Assembly (NCBI RefSeq): GCF_003111645.1
Contig: NZ_CP022187.1
Span: 1,240,001-1,304,000 of the forward strand
DNA: 64,000 nt
From: Parazoarcus communis
Lineage (GTDB): Bacteria; Pseudomonadota; Gammaproteobacteria; Burkholderiales; Rhodocyclaceae
Direction of reading: 5' to 3'
Below are positions 32,760-43,466 of the stretch, piece by piece (positions within the stretch are counted from its first letter, which is position 1; each line of letters opens with the position of its first letter). Under the pieces are notes generated by a model, which ran no database searches, had not been told where the DNA came from, and saw nothing but the letters and a program-made list of their open reading frames with translations. The position numbers and the translations under genes are program-made.

Positions 32760-33734
32760 TTACTTCTTGCTCTTGCTCTTGCCCTTGGTCACGACAGGCA
32801 GGGAATCGAGCACCGCGACCAGCTCTTTTGCCGAACGCTCGCCCAGCAGTTTGAGACCGGCACGCAGCACTTCGGACTTCGTTGCCAGCCGTCCGGCACG
32901 TGCCAGCGCGGTACGTATCTTCTTGAGCGCAGCCTGCTCGCTCTTGGGCATCGAGAACGAATCCCGCACCACCTTGCCCGCCTTTTCCTTTTTCGACTCG
33001 ACGCTCGCAGCCGGGAGCTTGATGACTGCGGGGCCGGCGACCGACTTCTTCGCACCGCCGGACGTGCCGGCCACGGCTTTCGCAGGCGCCACCCTCGCCA
33101 CCGCTGTTCCAGCGGACTTGACCTTGGCCGCCTTGGGCTTTGCTTCTGCCGGCTTAGCTGCTGCCGGTTTAGCTGCTACCGGTTTAGCTGCTACCGGTTT
33201 GGCCGCTGCCGGTTTGGCCGCTGCCGGTTTGGCCGCCGCCGGTTTGGCCGCCGCCGGTTTGGCCGCTGCCGGTTTGGTTGCTGCCGGCTTGGCCGCTGCT
33301 TTCGCCCCGGCTTCGGCCTTGGGCTTTGCAGGCGCCTTTTCTGCAGCGGGCTTCGCGACCGCGGCAGGCTTGGCCGGCGCAGGCTTCTTCGCTGCGCTTG
33401 CACGACGTCGGGCCGGGGCCTTGGAAGTCGCCGTCGCAGCGGGTGCAGCCGCAGCAGCAGCAGACGCGGGAGCCGGCACCGGCTCGGCAGCCGCGACCGG
33501 TTTCGCCTCGACCGGCGCTGCCGGCGCAGGCTTTGCTGTCACGGGCTTGCGCGCACGCGGGGCCCGCGGCGTCACGGGCTTTGCCGCGGGCTTCGCGGCA
33601 GGCTTCTCAGCCTGAGCGGACCTGGTCGCCGTCGCCGCGACCGCGGCCACTTCGGGCAAGCGTCCGGCAACCGAGGCGTCTTCCTGCTTGAGCGTGGCAC
33701 GCAGTGCCGATTGCGTCTTGTTGCGTGTGGTCAT
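32760..33734 (-). CDS. Histone-H1-like Ala/Lys/Pro-rich protein with C-terminal ribbon-helix-helix-like domain
   Basis: The 324-residue protein is dominated by a basic, disordered tail of AAAKP pentapeptides (about residues 145-195), flanked by other K/P/A-rich blocks. This resembles histone-H1-like AlgP/PhaF proteins, which coat DNA. The last 75 residues are different: a globular segment SFSMPKSEQAALKKI...KSEVLRAGLKLLGE resembles a ribbon-helix-helix DNA-binding fold. The ATG overlaps the parA stop (ATGA at 33731-33734), so the two are translationally coupled. I infer a DNA-binding or cargo-adaptor partner of the ParA ATPase; its exact role is unknown. Confidence 0.75.
   Translation of the reverse strand: MTTRNKTQSALRATLKQEDASVAGRLPEVAAVAATATRSAQAEKPAAKPAAKPVTPRAPRARKPVTAKPAPAAPVEAKPVAAAEPVPAPASAAAAAAPAATATSKAPARRRASAAKKPAPAKPAAVAKPAAEKAPAKPKAEAGAKAAAKPAATKPAAAKPAAAKPAAAKPAAAKPAAAKPVAAKPVAAKPAAAKPAEAKPKAAKVKSAGTAVARVAPAKAVAGTSGGAKKSVAGPAVIKLPAASVESKKEKAGKVVRDSFSMPKSEQAALKKIRTALARAGRLATKSEVLRAGLKLLGERSAKELVAVLDSLPVVTKGKSKSKK
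33151..33300 (-). repeat. Ten tandem 15-bp units encoding AAAKP pentapeptides
   Basis: Ten uninterrupted 15-bp units run from 33151 to 33300, most of the form ggtttggccgctgcc on the plus strand. They differ mainly at silent or Ala/Val/Thr-changing positions. This coding minisatellite forms the core of the H1-like tail and is a likely site of length variation by slippage. Confidence 0.9.
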
Positions 33735-36628: not shown

Positions 36629-38431
36629 TCAGTGCCCCAGCCAGCCCTTCCGCAGACGGCGCACCGACGCTGCAGCCTTCTCGTCCACGGCCAGTTTGAC
36701 CACGTCACTGGCGGACGCTGCGAGTTCGACGTCGAAGCACATCAGCTCGTCGCGGCGGAAGGCGTGGACTTCGATTGAATCACCCGTCTGATGACGCTCG
36801 AGCATGCTGTCGAGGTTGGCAGCGCTGACCTTGAGCCCGTCGACGGCGAGCAGCACATCCCCCGCCGACAGCCCGGCGAGCTGAGCCGCGCCGCCGTCAT
36901 ACGCGGTCGCAATCTTCGCTTCGCCCTTTCCGTTTCCACCCGCGAGCTTGATGCCGAGCGTCGGCTTCGCGCCCGGCGCCTCGGGCTGATACGCCACGCC
37001 GAAGGGCTTGAGCAGGCGGGCCAGCGGCAGGTCGTCCGTGCCTTCGACCGCCTTGCGCAGCCAGCGCGCCAGCCGTGCGCCACAATCCTTGCCGCCGACC
37101 TCCTCGACGATGGCAAAGATGCCGTCCTCGGCAACACCGACGCCGGTCTGTCCATGGCGCTGCCACAGCAGCCGCATCACGCCATCCAGGCTACGCTTGC
37201 CGCCGGTCTCGCTGCGCAGCTGCAGGTCGAGCGCGAGTGCGATCAGCGAGCCCTTGGCGTAGTAGCTGACGATTGCGTTCGGCGAATTTTCGTCCTGCCG
37301 GTAGTACTTGCTCCAGGCCTCGAACGAGGATTCCGCCACGCTCTGCCGATGACGACCGGGACCGCGCAGGACGGCAGAAACCGTCTTGCCCACCAGTCCA
37401 AGATAGTCGGCCGGCGAGATCACGCCTGAGCGCACTAGCACGAGGTCGTCGTAATAGGACGTGAAGCCCTCGAAGGCCCACAGCAGCCGGGTGTAGTTTT
37501 CGACCGCCAGGTCGTAGGGCACGAAGGCGGCGGGCTTGATGCGCTTGACGTTCCAGGTGTGGAAGTATTCGTGGCTGCACAGGCCAAGGAAGGTCTTGTA
37601 GCCGTCGGGCAGACCGGTCATGCCTTTCCACGGCAGGTCTGCCCGGCTGGCCAGCAGCGCGGTGGATGCGCGGTGTTCCAGCCCGCCGTAACCGTCGCCG
37701 ACCAGCTGCGTCAGAAAGACGTAATAGTCCATCGGCGGGGGCGCACCGAAGAGCTCGATCTGGAACTGACAGATGCGTTCGAGATCGGCTGCAAGGCGCT
37801 CGGTATCGCAGTCGTGGCGACCGGTGAGCACGATGTCGTGGCGCACCCCGCCCGCCTCGAAACCGGCAAGCGTGAATGTGCCCATCTCGACCGGGTGATC
37901 GACCAGTTCGTCGTAGTTCTCCGCCCGGTACAGCCCGAACCCGTAAGCGAGCGCCGCGCCGATTTCGCCACGCGCGCGCGGCAGCGCGGTCGCCACTTTC
38001 CAGTCACGATAGGCCATGCCTTCCGGACTCTCGATCTCGACCAGACAGGGCCGGTCGGTGCGCCCCTCCACCGCAAGAAACACGCTGGTGCCGTTGAAGA
38101 AGCCGTGGGTCTGGTCAAGATGCGCCGCACGCACCGACAGATCCCATGCATACACTTCGTAGAACACCGTCAGCGGCTTTCCGGCAGCCAGCCCGGTAAC
38201 GAGCCAGGTGTGCTTGTCGAGCTTCTCGACCTTCGCGGCCTTTCCTCCTGACTCGGCGCGCAGGCTCACGACGTGGCGCGCGAACTCGCGAATCATGTAG
38301 CTGCCCGGAATCCAGGCCGGCAGGCTGAAACGCTGGCCTGCGGGGTCCGGATCACTGACCGTGCAGCGCAACTCGAACACATGGGCTTCAGGACGCGAGG
38401 GGCGGATGAAATAGCGGATCGGGGCAGTCAT
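36629..38431 (-). CDS. M61-family metallopeptidase with PDZ domain
   Basis: The 600-residue protein matches the glycyl-aminopeptidase (M61) family. It has an N-terminal beta domain (FSLPAWIPGSYMIREFARH) and a zinc site HEYFH in LCSHEYFHTWNVKRIKP (about residue 285). The third ligand Glu is in WAFEGFTSYYDDL. A C-terminal PDZ domain (about 500-580) includes AAQLAGLSAGDVLLAVDGLKV. No signal peptide is visible, so it is probably cytoplasmic. Related proteins of about 600 residues are widespread in proteobacteria; their substrate is poorly known. It is divergent from the DnaA-box repeat region. Confidence 0.88.
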   Translation of the reverse strand: MTAPIRYFIRPSRPEAHVFELRCTVSDPDPAGQRFSLPAWIPGSYMIREFARHVVSLRAESGGKAAKVEKLDKHTWLVTGLAAGKPLTVFYEVYAWDLSVRAAHLDQTHGFFNGTSVFLAVEGRTDRPCLVEIESPEGMAYRDWKVATALPRARGEIGAALAYGFGLYRAENYDELVDHPVEMGTFTLAGFEAGGVRHDIVLTGRHDCDTERLAADLERICQFQIELFGAPPPMDYYVFLTQLVGDGYGGLEHRASTALLASRADLPWKGMTGLPDGYKTFLGLCSHEYFHTWNVKRIKPAAFVPYDLAVENYTRLLWAFEGFTSYYDDLVLVRSGVISPADYLGLVGKTVSAVLRGPGRHRQSVAESSFEAWSKYYRQDENSPNAIVSYYAKGSLIALALDLQLRSETGGKRSLDGVMRLLWQRHGQTGVGVAEDGIFAIVEEVGGKDCGARLARWLRKAVEGTDDLPLARLLKPFGVAYQPEAPGAKPTLGIKLAGGNGKGEAKIATAYDGGAAQLAGLSAGDVLLAVDGLKVSAANLDSMLERHQTGDSIEVHAFRRDELMCFDVELAASASDVVKLAVDEKAAASVRRLRKGWLGH

Positions 38432-38562
38432 GGGCAGGACGGGCGACAGCAGCCGGAAAACGGAGAAGTCCCGATTTTAGGCGCTTTGCGAGGAGCTGCC
38501 TATTTATTGTGCAGCACGCAAAAGCCCTGTTGCTTCAAGGTGTTTGAACGCTCCCTCACACC

Positions 38563-39049
38563 TTGTCCACAGCTTCGCCCACGGCCTCCGGGGATAAACC
38601 CGATGGGTCGGACCTGTTTTCCACACCCCACGCGGAAAATTCGTGCGAATCGCCACCAAAAACACTGGACAAACGTCGAAACTCGCCGGAAAACAGGTCT
38701 GAGCGGCGCTTTTCCCGGACTTGCCTAATTTTTAGGCAGACGATGAAATCCCTTTCGATTCAAGGAGGTTTCGGCTTCCCTCACACCTTGTCCACAGCTT
38801 CACCCACGCCGCACGGGGATAAACAGGACTGATCGAACACACAATCCACAGGCCGCGCAGAAATTACGTAGAAACCGCAGCAGAAAACAGTGGACAAATC
38901 GCCGAAAAGGCCCGGGAAAGGTCTTGAAACCACGATTTCATGGGACTGCCTCATTTTTAGGCAAGCCTCGAAAAGCCTGTTGATTCAAGGCGGTTGCGGA
39001 CTCCCCCACACCTTGTCCACAGCTTCATTCACCTTGATCGTGGATAAAC
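38563..39049. other. Cluster of DnaA-box-like sequences inside the 225-bp repeats
   Basis: TTGTCCACA, the preferred DnaA 9-mer of some high-GC bacteria and one base from the E. coli consensus TTATCCACA, occurs at 38563, 38788 and 39013. TTTTCCACA, a perfect TTWTNCACA match, is at 38617-38625, and its counterpart CAATCCACA is at 38842. On the opposite strand are TTATCCCCG-like (twice) and TTATCCACG (complement of 39039-39047), plus TTGTCCACT (complement of 38890-38898). Alternating orientation and AT-rich patches resemble a replication-origin or DnaA-titration region. No dnaA, dnaN or rep gene is in the window, so function is inferred only. Confidence 0.55.
38722..38738. repeat. Inverted repeat TGCCTAA-ttt-TTAGGCA at repeat-unit boundary
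   Basis: A perfect 7-bp palindrome with a 3-base spacer opens the second unit. It is partly kept in unit 3 (38947-38963, one mismatch) and decayed in unit 1. It marks the junction of each unit and may be a protein-binding site. Confidence 0.6.
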
Positions 39050-39216
39050 ACAGTTGATCAAAGAAAGGCCGGCATCGACTCCTGCCTGCGCGACACCCGT
39101 CGTCTCTCCGAAACCCGTGCGCTGACATCCCGGCACGCCTTCATCCGGCCTGCGCTTTGTTGGTGCAGCGCGCTTGGCAGATAATCCGGCACGGAATTTC
39201 GCAAAGGTACAGATCG

Positions 39217-40179
39217 ATGCCCCCATTCAACGCCGTCTTCCTGGACATCACCCCGCTCGACCAGAACGATCTCGACCTGACTTCACTGCGGGAAGCATTT
39301 TCTGGCTTTGAGGCCTACGAGCACACCCCGGCTGAGCAGGTAATCAGCCGACTGCAGGGGGCACAGGTCGCGATCGTCAACAAGGTCAATCTGACGGCTG
39401 AAATGCTTGCAGCCTGCCCGCAACTGGAACTCGTGCTGGTTTCCGCGACCGGTCTGAACAACGTGGATCTGGACGCGGCGAAGGCACGCGGGATTGCCGT
39501 GTTCAACTGTCAGGGCTACGGCACCGCCACCGTTGCGCAACACACGCTGATGCTGTTGCTGGCACTGGCGACCCGGCTACCGGATTATCAGGCTGCGGTG
39601 AAAGCGGGCCACTGGCAGCAGGCAAAGCATTTCTGTCTGCTCGATTTTCCGATTGTCGAACTGGCGGGCAAGACCCTTGGCGTGCTTGGCCAGGGCGAGC
39701 TCGGTGGCGCAGTAACGCGACTGGCCGAGGCACTGGGCATGCGCGTGGTGGTCGGCAACCTTCCCGGGCGTCCGCCGAAGGCGGATCGTCTGTCCCTGGA
39801 TGCCTTGCTGCCCGAGGTCGATGCGCTCACGCTGCACTGCCCGCTCACCGAGCAAACACGCAATCTGATCGGCGCGCGCGAGCTTGCACTGATGAAACCC
39901 GGCGCCTTCCTGATCAATACCGCGCGTGGCGGACTGGTTGAAGAGCAGGCGCTGGCCGATGCGCTGCGTCGCGGTCATCTCGGCGGCGCTGCAACCGATG
40001 TGCTGATTCAGGAGCCCCCGGTCGCTGGCAACCCCCTGCTGGCCGACGACGTACCACGCCTGATCGTCACGCCACACAGCGCCTGGGGCAGCCGCGAGGC
40101 ACGTCAGCGCATCGTCGATCAGCTGGTCGAGAACACGCACGCGTTCAGGTCGGGGAACGCGCTGCGTCGGGTTGCGTGA
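39217..40179 (+). CDS. D-2-hydroxyacid dehydrogenase (glycerate/hydroxypyruvate-type)
   Basis: The 320-residue NAD(P)-dependent enzyme has the Rossmann motif LGVLGQGELGGAV (about 150). Catalytic Arg is in INTARGGLVEEQAL, Glu in the QEPPVAGNPLL segment and His in VTPHSAWGSREAR. The substrate-side GYGTATVAQHTLMLLLAL matches HprA-type glycerate dehydrogenases, which interconvert hydroxypyruvate and glycerate. The closest-looking group is glycerate dehydrogenase, but related enzymes act on other 2-oxoacids. The start at 39217 was chosen over an upstream frame (39157) because the family begins at this Met. Confidence 0.85.
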   Translation: MPPFNAVFLDITPLDQNDLDLTSLREAFSGFEAYEHTPAEQVISRLQGAQVAIVNKVNLTAEMLAACPQLELVLVSATGLNNVDLDAAKARGIAVFNCQGYGTATVAQHTLMLLLALATRLPDYQAAVKAGHWQQAKHFCLLDFPIVELAGKTLGVLGQGELGGAVTRLAEALGMRVVVGNLPGRPPKADRLSLDALLPEVDALTLHCPLTEQTRNLIGARELALMKPGAFLINTARGGLVEEQALADALRRGHLGGAATDVLIQEPPVAGNPLLADDVPRLIVTPHSAWGSREARQRIVDQLVENTHAFRSGNALRRVA

Positions 40180-40263
40180 GACGGATACGGCCTCGCTGAG
40201 CAGGATGGTACGCGCGGGTCCGGCGGCCCGCGCCACACGGAATCATGTGGATTGCCGTTGTGA

Positions 40264-40279
40264 CTGTATTTATTTACAG
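40264..40279 (+). promoter_or_regulatory. LexA (SOS) box upstream of dnaE2
   Basis: CTGTATTTATTTACAG is a perfect CTGT-N8-ACAG LexA operator. It lies seven bases ahead of the dnaE2 ATG and so would cover the promoter/leader region. It indicates DNA-damage induction of dnaE2. Confidence 0.88.
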
Positions 40280-40286
40280 TCCACAC

Positions 40287-43200
40287 ATGATCCCGCGCTT
40301 TGCCGAACTCCATTGCCTGTCCAACTTCAGCTTCCAGCGTGGCGCTTCGCACCCCGAAGAGCTGGCCACGCAGGCGGCGGCCTTCGGTTATGAGGCGCTT
40401 GCCATCACCGATGAATGTTCGCTGGCGGGGGTTGTCCGGGCGCATCGCTGCATTCGCGAACATGCGCTGCCTGTGCGGCTCATCATCGGCAGCGAGATCC
40501 GGCTCGAGGATGGCCCGGCACTGGTGCTCCTGGCCTGCACGCGCAAGGGATACGGTCAGCTCTCGCGGCTGATCACCCGCGGCCGCCGCGCCGCCGACAA
40601 GGGGCATTACCGGCTGCTGCGCAGCGATCTCGAACACGGGCTGGACGATTGCCTGGCCGTGCTGCTGTCACCCGACCTGCCCGACGAAAGCACCGAGGCC
40701 GCCGCCCACTGGCTCGCCAGGTGGTTTCCCGGTGCAGCCTGGATGGCCTTCATGCAGACGCTCGACGGCCGCGACGCCGCCCGTCTGACGCAACTGCGCC
40801 TGATCGGCGCACGCACCGGCCTGCGCCTCATCGCCAGCACCGGCGCGCTGATGCACGACGCCAGCCGCCGCCCGCTGGCCGATGTACTCACTGCGACGCG
40901 CCTGCTCACCACCGTGGCCGATGCCGGGCTTGCGCTCGCCGCCAATGCCGAGCGCCGGTTGCAGGCACGTGAAGTGCTCGGGCGCCGCTTTCCACCCGAT
41001 CTGCTGGCCGAAACCCTGGTACTCGCCGAACGCTGCAACTTCACGCTCGACGAATTGCGCTACGAGTATCCGGAAGAGCTCGTCCCTGCGACCGAAACGC
41101 CCGCCTCCTGGCTGCGCAAGCTGGTCGAAGCGGGGCTGCGCTGGCGCTACCGCAAGGCTGAGTCCGCCGACGACGCCCTTGCCTGCGCAGCCGCTGGGGA
41201 CGACGACCCGGCGCCCGCCAGGGTTCGTCACCAGATCGAGACCGAACTCGCCCTGATCGGCGAACTCGCCTATGAGGCGTATTTCCTCACCGTGCACGAC
41301 ATCGTCCGCTTTGCCCGCAGTGCAGGCATCCTGTGCCAGGGGCGCGGCTCCGCGGCCAACTCGGTGGTGTGCTGGGCGCTGGGCATTACCGAAGTCGACC
41401 CTTCGCTCGGCATCATGCTGGTCGAACGCTTCATCTCGCGCGAGCGCCAGGAACCGCCCGACATCGACGTCGACTTCGAGCACTCGCGCCGCGAAGAGGT
41501 CATCCAGTACATCTATCGCAAGTACGGCCGTGAGCGTGCCGCGCTGGCCGGCACCGTCATCAGCTACCGCTCGCGCAGCGCACTGCGCGATGTGGGTCGG
41601 GCGCTGGGTTTCGAGGCCGCACAGATCGAGCGCCTGACCCGCGACCGCTACTGGTTCGACGACGGACAGATCATTCCCGAGCGGGTGCGCGAGGCCGGTT
41701 TCGATCCCGACAGCCCGCAGCTCATCCAGCTCCTGTCGCTCACCCACGCCCTGATCGGCTTTCCGCGCCACCTGTCGCAGCACGTCGGCGGCTTCGTGAT
41801 TGCGCGCGGCCGGCTCGATGAGCTGGTCCCGATCGAAAACGCCGCCATGCCCGACCGCACCGTGCTGCAGTGGGACAAGGACGACCTCGACACCCTCGGC
41901 CTGCTCAAGGTCGACGTGCTCGCGCTCGGCATGCTCTCCGCACTGCGCCGTGCGCTCGACATGGTATCGGCGTGGCGTGGCACCCCGCTCAGCCTGGCCA
42001 GCATCCCGCGCGAGGAGGAGGCGGTGTACGCCATGCTGTCGCGCGCCGACACCATCGGCGTGTTCCAGATCGAATCGCGCGCGCAGATGACCATGCTGCC
42101 ACGGCTCAAGCCGACGCGTTTCTACGACCTGGTCGTCGAGGTCGCCATCGTGCGCCCTGGCCCGATCCAGGGCGGCATGGTCCATCCCTATCTCGAAGCG
42201 CGCACACGCAAGGCCCGCGGCGAAGACCCGATGGCCGGTCTGCGGCATGAGATCCGCGCCGTGCTGGAACGCACGCTGGGGGTGCCGATCTTTCAGGAGC
42301 AGGTGATGCAGCTCGCAGTGGCGGCGGCCGGCTTCACCGGTGGCGAGGCTGATCAGCTGCGCCGCTCGATGGGCGCATGGCGGCGCAAGGGCGAACTCGA
42401 GCGTTACCGCAACAAGCTGCTGCAAGGCATGGCTGCCAACGGCTACGAAGCCGAATTTGCCGAACGCCTGTGCAAGCAGATCGAAGGCTTCGGCAGCTAT
42501 GGTTTTCCGGAATCCCATGCGGCCAGCTTCGCCTTGCTGGTCTATGCCTCGGCCTGGCTCAAATGCTTCGAACCCGCAGCCTTCCTGTGTGCCCTGCTCA
42601 ACAGCCAGCCGATGGGCTTCTATTCGCCCTCGCAACTGATCCAGGACGCACGCCGCCATCAGGTCGAGGTCCGCAGCGCGGACGTCAATGCCAGCGACAG
42701 GGAATGCACACTGGAGGCGATTGACGATGAAGTAGCCGGTACTGATCGTGCACACACGAACCCTGCCGTGCGTCTGGGCCTGTGCATGATCCGCGGGCTC
42801 GGCACCGAGACCGCCACCCGCATTGCCACCGCCCGCGCCACACGGCCCTTTGCCGACGTGGCCGACCTCGCCACGCGCGCCGGCCTGGATGCCGCCACCC
42901 TGCAACGCCTGGCCGCGGCCGACGCACTCAAATCACTGGCCGGCAACCGCCGCCAGGCCTTGTGGCAGGCCACCGGCAACTGCCCGCTGCCCGGCATGCT
43001 CAAAGGCGCAGCCGGCTACGAAACCGCACTTCGCTTCGCCCCGCCCTCGGAAGCAGAGGATCTGCGTGCCGACTACAACAGGCTCGGTTTCACCCTCGGT
43101 CGCCACCCGCTGAGCCTGTTGCGCACAACCCTGCGTGGCATGCGCTTTCTGGATGCCACCGAGATCATGCACTGCCCCGACCGCATGCTCGCCCGCGCCG

Positions 43201-43466
43201 CCGGCATCGTGACCTGCCGCCAGCGCCCCGGCACCGCCAATGGCACGATGTTCATCACCCTGGAAGACGAAGCCGGCCTCATCAACATCATCGTTCGCCC
43301 CGAGCTGGTCGAACGTCAGCGCCGGCAGCTTCTGGGCGCGAAGCTGCTGGGGGTGTACGGGCAGATCAGCCGTCAGGGCCAGGTGGTGCACCTCATCGCC
43401 GGCCGCGTGGTCGACCACTCCGCCCTGCTCGGCCAGCTAGAGACCCACAGCAGGGACTTCCATTGA
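40287..43466 (+). CDS. dnaE2: Error-prone DNA polymerase DnaE2 (ImuC)
   Basis: DnaE2 is a non-essential C-family polymerase for translesion synthesis, normally working with ImuA and ImuB. The 1059-residue protein has a PHP domain (FAELHCLSNFSFQRGASHPEEL at the start) and the polymerase active-site Asp pair in EPPDIDVDFEHSRREEVIQYIYRKYG (about 390). It has the FPRHLSQHVGGFVIARG block and a C-terminal OB fold (about 980-1050, ending VDHSALL). Length and the IDVDFEHSRREEVIQ variant fit DnaE2 rather than DnaE1. The ATG follows the LexA box directly. imuA and imuB are not beside it. Confidence 0.93.
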   Translation: MIPRFAELHCLSNFSFQRGASHPEELATQAAAFGYEALAITDECSLAGVVRAHRCIREHALPVRLIIGSEIRLEDGPALVLLACTRKGYGQLSRLITRGRRAADKGHYRLLRSDLEHGLDDCLAVLLSPDLPDESTEAAAHWLARWFPGAAWMAFMQTLDGRDAARLTQLRLIGARTGLRLIASTGALMHDASRRPLADVLTATRLLTTVADAGLALAANAERRLQAREVLGRRFPPDLLAETLVLAERCNFTLDELRYEYPEELVPATETPASWLRKLVEAGLRWRYRKAESADDALACAAAGDDDPAPARVRHQIETELALIGELAYEAYFLTVHDIVRFARSAGILCQGRGSAANSVVCWALGITEVDPSLGIMLVERFISRERQEPPDIDVDFEHSRREEVIQYIYRKYGRERAALAGTVISYRSRSALRDVGRALGFEAAQIERLTRDRYWFDDGQIIPERVREAGFDPDSPQLIQLLSLTHALIGFPRHLSQHVGGFVIARGRLDELVPIENAAMPDRTVLQWDKDDLDTLGLLKVDVLALGMLSALRRALDMVSAWRGTPLSLASIPREEEAVYAMLSRADTIGVFQIESRAQMTMLPRLKPTRFYDLVVEVAIVRPGPIQGGMVHPYLEARTRKARGEDPMAGLRHEIRAVLERTLGVPIFQEQVMQLAVAAAGFTGGEADQLRRSMGAWRRKGELERYRNKLLQGMAANGYEAEFAERLCKQIEGFGSYGFPESHAASFALLVYASAWLKCFEPAAFLCALLNSQPMGFYSPSQLIQDARRHQVEVRSADVNASDRECTLEAIDDEVAGTDRAHTNPAVRLGLCMIRGLGTETATRIATARATRPFADVADLATRAGLDAATLQRLAAADALKSLAGNRRQALWQATGNCPLPGMLKGAAGYETALRFAPPSEAEDLRADYNRLGFTLGRHPLSLLRTTLRGMRFLDATEIMHCPDRMLARAAGIVTCRQRPGTANGTMFITLEDEAGLINIIVRPELVERQRRQLLGAKLLGVYGQISRQGQVVHLIAGRVVDHSALLGQLETHSRDFH

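What the first reader, a model, noticed from the sequence alone, without database searches (positions are those of the whole stretch)
38497..39062. Exact 225-bp triplicate repeat array packed with DnaA-box-like sites
Three non-coding units align with no indels, so every motif recurs at exactly +225 and +450. Each unit carries TTGTCCACA plus oppositely oriented GGATAAA and TGGACAAA elements, and the first also has TTTTCCACA. Sequence between the motifs has diverged while motif spacing has not, which suggests selection on phasing. Established: DnaA binds TTWTNCACA and, in some high-GC bacteria, TTGTCCACA. Inference: a datA-like DnaA-titration site, a cryptic or secondary origin, or a remnant of an integrated replicon. 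No dnaA, dnaN or rep gene is in the window.
Basis: partly seen in the sequence, partly recalled or inferred. Interest (0 to 1): 0.82.

Follow-up and report, generated by a model that had tools for sequence, protein, structure and literature searches.

The report
Tandem DARS-like DnaA-control module array
The three repeats look like copies of a compact DNA switch, found in many related bacteria, whose binding sites for the replication-starting protein DnaA are spaced as in the E. coli sites that recharge DnaA, which suggests that this way of timing DNA replication is more widespread than described.

Summary
The repeat is real: three units at exactly +225 bp without indels, the third truncated. 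The period is not what is conserved: relatives carry 1, 2 or 3 units at periods of 224, 134/135 or 130/135 bp. What is kept is the inside of the unit, about 104 bp: a dyad TGCCNNATTTTTNNGCA, an IHF-like site, and three DnaA boxes, direct at 0, direct at +12, inverted at +26. In E. coli DARS1 and DARS2 (DnaA-reactivating sequences) this is the best of 208 box geometries tested; oriC lacks it and datA has only the +12 pair. A sequence model finds the unit in 118 of 199 family genomes and 208 of 399 order genomes, often in tandem; blastn of the array found nothing in plasmid or phage collections. The array lies 1.92 Mb from oriC, so it is not an origin. [quoted passage not shown] This is inferred from anatomy; no biochemistry was possible. 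Passive DnaA titration is the main rival. The dyad's protein is unknown: the site fits Fis, but no stand-alone Fis gene was found in this genome.

The parts
38497..38513 (+). Unit 1 dyad TGCCTATTTATTGTGCA (possible site of a nucleoid protein)
   Evidence: 66 bp before box III in 18 of 18 aligned units
38533..38545 (+). Unit 1 IHF-like site (6 of 9 consensus positions)
38563..38571 (+). Unit 1 DnaA box III, TTGTCCACA
38575..38583 (+). Unit 1 DnaA box II, TCGCCCACG (weak)
38589..38597 (-). Unit 1 DnaA box I, inverted (CGGGGATAA on + strand)
38617..38625 (+). Extra DnaA-like box TTTTCCACA, unit 1 only
38722..38738 (+). Unit 2 dyad TGCCTAATTTTTAGGCA
38758..38770 (+). Unit 2 IHF-like site
38788..38796 (+). 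Unit 2 DnaA box III, TTGTCCACA
38800..38808 (+). Unit 2 DnaA box II, TCACCCACG (weak)
38814..38822 (-). Unit 2 DnaA box I, inverted
38947..38963 (+). Unit 3 dyad TGCCTCATTTTTAGGCA
38983..38995 (+). Unit 3 IHF-like site
39013..39021 (+). Unit 3 DnaA box III, TTGTCCACA
39025..39033 (+). Unit 3 DnaA box II, TCATTCACC
39039..39047 (-). Unit 3 DnaA box I, inverted (CGTGGATAA on + strand)
   Evidence: best trio of the window, 21 of 24
36629..38431 (-). Neighbour: M61 peptidase gene, reads away from the array; marks the same locus in relatives
39217..40179 (+). Neighbour: D-2-hydroxyacid dehydrogenase gene; by eye not present between array and polymerase gene in G001, G003, G004
40290..43466 (+). Neighbour: DNA polymerase III alpha-type gene (dnaE2-like by recall)

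Best explanation
The array is three tandem copies of a compact, DARS2-like DnaA-control module. Proposed working: IHF bends the DNA at a site that starts 30 bp before DnaA box III, and a second protein binds the dyad at -66. Together they help ADP-DnaA assemble on boxes III, II and I. DnaA on boxes II and I then meets head to head and loses ADP; the freed apo-DnaA picks up ATP and can start replication at oriC. Tandem copies would add capacity. Shown here: the anatomy, its internal spacing over many genera, its dispersal, its distance from oriC, and the identity of its box geometry with that of DARS1 and DARS2. Inferred: DnaA and IHF binding, the direction of the effect (reactivation rather than storage or inactivation), and the role of the dyad.
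For: Of 208 tested box geometries, direct box at +12 and inverted box at +26 ranks first in E. coli DARS1 (22 of 24) and first in DARS2 (21 of 24), while in oriC 170 of the 208 reach its score. It also ranks first in the 18 units chosen without any model (mean 19.9; all geometries 13.6, sd 1.2) and in 176 of 186 model-found units, 10 short ones skipped (mean 18.7; 13.6, sd 0.94). A review gives the same definition: equal spacing in DARS1 and DARS2, box I opposed to II and III (section 20 of PMC5742627). Scanned without filters over 26 kb of E. coli holding datA, DARS1, DARS2 and oriC, model R2's two best places are in the DARS2 and DARS1 regions, at these trios (10.3 and 8.6 bits; next 6.2 in asnA; best in the datA stretch 4.9). 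In 65 order-level units the IHF pattern fits best at -30 (6.9 of 9, next offset 5.3). IHF-like and Fis-like positions lie on the box III side, as in DARS2. Shifting the IHF or Fis sites of DARS2 by 5-10 bp impairs it (passages of PMC4245941), which would explain fixed spacing. Two halves of a profile made only from the 18 M61-locus units each beat all 1.42 million null positions, in register, at 10 of 13 further loci of family and order. No RNA fold or Rfam family.
Against: No binding or nucleotide exchange was tested. Scores alone do not separate DARS from datA: the DnaA half of the 18-unit profile gives datA 4.4, DARS2 6.1, DARS1 2.8; only the inverted box does. The E. coli matches are weak (E 0.014 and 0.05), and I placed boxes I-III of DARS1 and DARS2 by their shared spacing, since the figures were not held. 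The middle Zoogloea units (4 of 4) have box II at +11, not +12, and 8 of 74 units have an internal indel against the model. In the 18 units box III is strong and box II weak (5-6 of 8), whereas box II is a full box in DARS1. In the 18 units the IHF fit at -30 (5.5 of 9) hardly exceeds other offsets (5.3 at -10 and -66); over 70 family units it is 0.63 against 0.61 at +1, and the Fis fit 0.83 at -65 against 0.82 at -9. The window copies match IHF at 6 of 9 positions. The sites lie closer to the boxes (-30, -65) than those in DARS2 (-71/-87, -125). In 34 class-level units neither site is seen at these offsets. No stand-alone Fis gene was found: 19 HTH_8 matches, all in open frames of 211 aa or more. 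Copy number and position vary between genera.
Confidence: 0.58

Rival explanations
1. A datA-like or passive DnaA-titration locus: the boxes hold or inactivate DnaA so that initiation waits until enough DnaA has been made.
For: Several DnaA boxes plus an IHF-like site, as in datA; tandem copies would store more DnaA, and in an array each inner IHF-like site has DnaA boxes on both sides, as the IHF site of datA has. The DnaA half of the 18-unit profile scores datA 4.4, between DARS1 2.8 and DARS2 6.1.
Against: datA has the +12 pair but no inverted box at +26 (4 of 8). At the M61 locus G001 and G004 have one unit, with boxes on one side of the IHF-like site only. Pure titration would not need fixed internal spacing or an inverted box. 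The array lies far from oriC, while datA lies near it.
Confidence: 0.23
2. A chromosome-organising site whose main ligand is the protein that binds the dyad, with DnaA as a secondary partner.
For: The dyad is among the best-conserved parts and is kept at the same distance from the boxes in many genera. Copies are scattered and thin out near the origin (53 clusters in 30 genomes, KS p 0.007; strongest copy per genome only, p 0.25).
Against: The DnaA boxes are as conserved as the dyad, and at 11 loci outside the class they are the better-conserved half. Orientation relative to the fork is mixed (17 of 32 matches co-directional).
Confidence: 0.08
3. A DnaA-controlled promoter region of the neighbouring M61 or dehydrogenase genes.
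For: In the window it lies between divergent genes, next to the M61 start. DnaA is known to act as a transcription regulator (start of the abstract of PMC8203912 in the listing).
Against: The same unit stands beside unrelated genes: NAD synthase, a GGDEF protein, fumarase, pyrroline-5-carboxylate reductase. Model R1 finds no unit in 15 M61 loci of Thauera and other relatives scanned whole.
Confidence: 0.05
4. A cryptic origin or a decayed replicon.
For: Clustered DnaA boxes and an IHF-like site occur in origins; the first DARS was found in the ColE1 plasmid origin (passage of PMC5835720).
Against: No skew change at the locus; oriC is at 3.2017-3.2047 Mb. No blastn match of the array in plasmids or phages. 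The unit recurs over the order.
Confidence: 0.03

Closest known systems
E. coli DARS2 (DnaA-reactivating sequence 2)
   Same: Three DnaA boxes with identical spacing (0, +12, inverted +26); IHF-like and Fis-like sites on the box III side; non-coding; spacing matters
   Different: About 104 bp against 455 bp; sites closer to the boxes; strong box III and weak box II; several dispersed copies and tandem arrays; no stand-alone Fis gene found; other neighbours
E. coli DARS1
   Same: Same three-box geometry (22 of 24)
   Different: DARS1 (101 bp) needs no protein factors (PMC4585315 passages); here IHF-like and dyad sites are built into each unit
E. coli datA
   Same: DnaA boxes plus IHF site; direct pair at +12
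   Different: No inverted box at +26; boxes on both sides of the IHF site; near oriC
B. subtilis DnaA-box clusters outside oriC
   Same: Dispersed DnaA-box clusters outside oriC (passage of PMC13220808)
   Different: Their architecture was not compared here; the passage says that B. [quoted passage not shown]

Membership tests
DARS (DnaA-reactivating sequence) | Core of three DnaA boxes, box I opposite to II and III, spacing as in DARS1 and DARS2 | tested here: met
   box I 6-7 of 8, box II 5-6 of 8, box III 7-8 of 8 in 18 of 18 units; exception: 4 of 4 middle Zoogloea units, left out of the 18, have box II at +11
DARS (DnaA-reactivating sequence) | Promotes ADP release from ADP-DnaA and raises ATP-DnaA | not testable with these tools
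   needs purified DnaA and mutants
DARS2 subtype | IHF site at fixed distance from the core | tested here: inconclusive
   Clear at -30 in 65 order-level units (6.9 of 9), marginal in family units, 6 of 9 in the window copies, not seen in class-level units; distance differs from DARS2
DARS2 subtype | Fis sites and a Fis protein | tested here: inconclusive
   Dyad fits GNNYRNNNNNYRNNC at 5 or 6 of 6 positions in 18 of 18 units, though offset -9 fits almost as well; no stand-alone Fis among 19 HTH_8 matches in this genome
DARS1/DARS2 orthology | Location beside uvrB or mutH | tested here: not met
   Neighbours are M61 peptidase and a hydroxyacid dehydrogenase; so DARS-like, not an ortholog of DARS1 or DARS2
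datA | DnaA boxes on both sides of one IHF site, near oriC | tested here: not met
   Single-unit relatives have one side only; array 1.92 Mb from oriC
oriC | GC-skew switch at the site | tested here: not met
   Skew switches at 3.204-3.207 Mb; at the array it is negative on both sides
Structured RNA | Conserved secondary structure or Rfam match | tested here: not met
   -1.1 kcal/mol consensus; in 37000-40500 one match far below its family cut-off, outside the array

The most novel reading that the evidence does not exclude
DnaA recycling by DARS-type sites is not an enterobacterial speciality but a widespread, perhaps ancestral, layer of replication control in Pseudomonadota. In Burkholderiales it takes the form of a compact module of dyad, IHF site and three DnaA boxes, multiplied in tandem and dispersed, in which an unidentified dyad-binding protein takes the place of Fis.
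Probability: 0.4. Interest if true: 0.87.

Novelty: new variant of a known kind. Interest (0 to 1): 0.74.

Why it matters
How bacteria outside the E. coli group recharge or retire DnaA is largely open. A 2014 paper stated that the DARS2 core is conserved specifically among gamma-proteobacteria related to E. coli (PMC4245941 section 26), while a later review speaks of E. coli-proximal beta- or gamma-proteobacteria (PMC5742627 passage). A recognisable module in 208 of 399 sampled genomes of the order gives a ready list of sites to delete, count and test, and points to a conserved dyad whose protein is unknown.

Tried and rejected
Fold as RNA: rejected. Plasmid or phage origin by distant blastn of the whole array: no match; the single unit was not searched there. 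A terminus-linked element: positions only thin out near the origin and orientation is mixed. A Fis gene that would explain the dyad: not found; two of the candidate places were read and look like response regulators (by recall); 17 more were fetched but not analysed. Weak matches in other classes of the phylum: of 11 such loci set against the 18-unit profile, the DnaA half beat all null positions in 9, the left half in 1; the dyad pattern does fit there (5.9 of 6 at -65, 11 rows), the IHF pattern does not. So I claim the whole module for the order, and only the box trio plus a dyad for some genomes beyond. These loci had been picked by model R2, which favours such matches. Counts from searches of more than 40 genomes are lower bounds, since only 9-19 candidates per genome were scored. 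The models' E-values are rough by the tool's own word, and no reversed-genome control was run. For one search I chose clusters by hand (E up to about 7e-5); dropped were 10 of 24 order genomes whose dnaA was not at the start and the positive family genomes G022, G046, G159, G103 and G155.

Full report
OBSERVATION. The window holds three ungapped copies at +225 and +450. The identity sits in short blocks: motif positions 77-89% identical between units, spacers 58-62%. The whole array gives one match in the 4.57-Mb genome. The box trio stands out: 19, 19 and 21 of 24, next best on that strand of the window 15, and nothing at 18 or above in 400 kb of other sequence of the same genome, both strands.

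WHERE IT LIES. The window is 1,240,001-1,304,000 of a single-contig genome; dnaA is at 3,093,020. GC skew, sampled in stretches, turns from negative to positive between 3.204 and 3.207 Mb and back near 0.95 Mb. A cluster of TTATCCACA and TTGTCCACA boxes at 3.2017-3.2047 Mb with AT-rich stretches marks the likely oriC. The array is therefore about 1.92 Mb from oriC, on the arm where + strand skew is negative. An M61 peptidase gene lies on one side; a D-2-hydroxyacid dehydrogenase and a DNA polymerase III alpha-type gene on the other.

RELATIVES. All 5 genomes of the genus, the own one included, have a match. At that place G002 has three copies, G003 two at period 224, G001 and G004 one. Of 80 named M61 loci, a box scan of 450 bp upstream of M61 found two copies at 134/135 bp in four Aromatoleum loci and three at 130/135 in four Zoogloea or Zoogloeaceae loci; the other 72 show at most one box-like match. 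So neither the period nor the copy number is conserved. The inside is: 18 units of these groups align with at most one end gap over 109 columns, the dyad starting 66 bp before the strong box in 18 of 18. Four middle Zoogloea-type units, not among the 18, keep dyad, box III and box I in place but have box II at +11.

HOW WIDE. A sequence-only model of the 18 (R1) matches 118 of 199 family genomes at E <= 0.01. A second model from 74 matches (R2; 8 of the 74 carry an internal indel) matches 208 of 399 genomes of the order, 102 of 159 genera, at E <= 1e-4. Two further searches of complete genomes were made to map copies and give no frequency: one search took 24 positives (24 of 24 match), one search took 21 positives and 3 negatives (21 of 24 match). 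In a class-level sample 78 of 369 match, the own genome and one other of the order included, and in a phylum-level sample 93 of 398: the own genome, 18 of the same order, 24 of the same class, 50 beyond the class (totals per rank were not given). Many of these are partial and cover mainly the DnaA half.

As a check free of the models' weights, I made a two-part profile from the 18 M61-locus units only. At the second copy of the own genome (459,889) both halves beat all 1.42 million null positions, in register. At the third copy (1,974,061) the DnaA half does, and the dyad-IHF half has p 7e-6. Of 13 further loci of family and order both halves beat the null in 10; the left half falls short in 3 (L135, L189, L197). 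Of 11 loci from other classes the DnaA half beats all null positions in 9, the left half in 1. The loci themselves had been found with R1 or R2, which favours agreement.

ANATOMY. (a) TGCC-ATTTTT-GCA dyad, which fits the Fis pattern: mean 5.4 of 6 in the 18 units, 5.7 in order-level rows; offset -9, inside the DnaA boxes, fits nearly as well in the family. (b) An A-rich stretch, then a site that fits IHF (WATCAANNNNTTR, as given in PMC4585315 passages). In 65 order-level units it is clear: 6.9 of 9 at -30, next offset 5.3, consensus TCA..gaCTTg. In the family it is only marginally the best offset, and the window copies match 6 of 9. (c) DnaA boxes: direct at 0 (III), direct at +12 (II), inverted at +26 (I), preceded by CCCACA. 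No RNA structure.

WHAT IT WORKS LIKE. Testing 208 geometries of two direct and one inverted box, (12, 26) ranks first in E. coli DARS1 and in DARS2; in oriC 170 of 208 reach its score. It ranks first in the 18 units and in 176 model-found units. In datA it ties for the top with three others only because of a +12 pair; the inverted box is absent there. A review states that DARS1 and DARS2 share the spacing of boxes I-III and that box I is opposed (PMC5742627 section 20); another paper says that this opposition lets ADP-DnaA meet head to head and lose ADP (PMC8682772 passages). DARS2 needs IHF and Fis at set distances (PMC4245941 passages). In the unit the IHF-like and dyad sites lie on the same side as in DARS2 but closer. 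I conclude: a compact DARS2-like module, likely to recharge DnaA. Membership is claimed at the level of box geometry only; ADP release is untested, and by neighbourhood it is no ortholog of DARS1 or DARS2.

CAUTIONS. The E. coli matches to R2 are weak, the positions of boxes I-III in E. coli were placed by geometry, not read from a figure, and the DnaA half of the 18-unit profile cannot tell datA from DARS by score. No stand-alone Fis was seen in this genome, so the dyad protein is open. IHF genes were not searched for. Printed work was searched in one open library only: no paper there holds both DnaA-reactivating and betaproteobacter, and the three that hold DARS2 and Burkholderia were seen as listings, one also in passages (PMC6090056, which reports DARS-like sequences in V. 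cholerae). Fujimitsu 2009, the source paper of DARS, was not read.

CHROMOSOME POSITION. 53 hand-chosen clusters in 30 complete genomes, with the origin taken as dnaA, fall into fifths from origin to terminus as 2, 10, 12, 16, 13 (KS p 0.007; strongest copy per genome only, p 0.25). G000 and G002 have three clusters each at similar relative places (0.79/0.82, 0.85/0.87, 0.49/0.54). Some genome sizes used were rounded.

Noticed in passing
window 40264-40279: CTGTATTTATTTACAG, a LexA-like palindrome (recalled motif), just before the polymerase gene at about 40290; similar palindromes stand before that gene in L005, L006 and L007 (by eye). Suggests SOS control and a start downstream of the listed ORF start.
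   Followed up: partly
window 33146-33299: Ten copies of a 15-bp repeat inside an ORF (32760-33734, minus strand) rich in AAKPA repeats; looks like a histone H1-like or phasin-like tail (recall).
   Followed up: no
L009 (own genome 3,201,746-3,204,724): The likely oriC is split: two AT-rich DnaA-box clusters about 2.7 kb apart with coding-like sequence between them, about 110 kb from dnaA rather than beside it.
   Followed up: partly
L010 2081-2182 (own genome about 3.0766 Mb): Another AT-rich DnaA-box cluster that matches the unit weakly (22.5 bits); its left half is poor.
   Followed up: partly
L161 2890-2988 and L162 3062-3163 (own genome 459,889 and 1,974,061): Two further single copies of the unit in this genome, beside an NAD synthase gene and a GGDEF gene; G002 has copies at similar relative places.
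   Followed up: yes
L280-L289, L299 (other classes of the phylum): Several of these 11 matches carry a near-perfect palindrome such as GCCTAAATTTTAGGCAA at the same distance from the DnaA boxes, without a clear IHF part. Which protein binds it is unknown.
   Followed up: partly
L195, L192, L199, L194, L208 (order-level genomes): Larger tandem arrays of the unit, with 5 to 7 matches within about 0.7-1.7 kb, in other families of the order.
   Followed up: no
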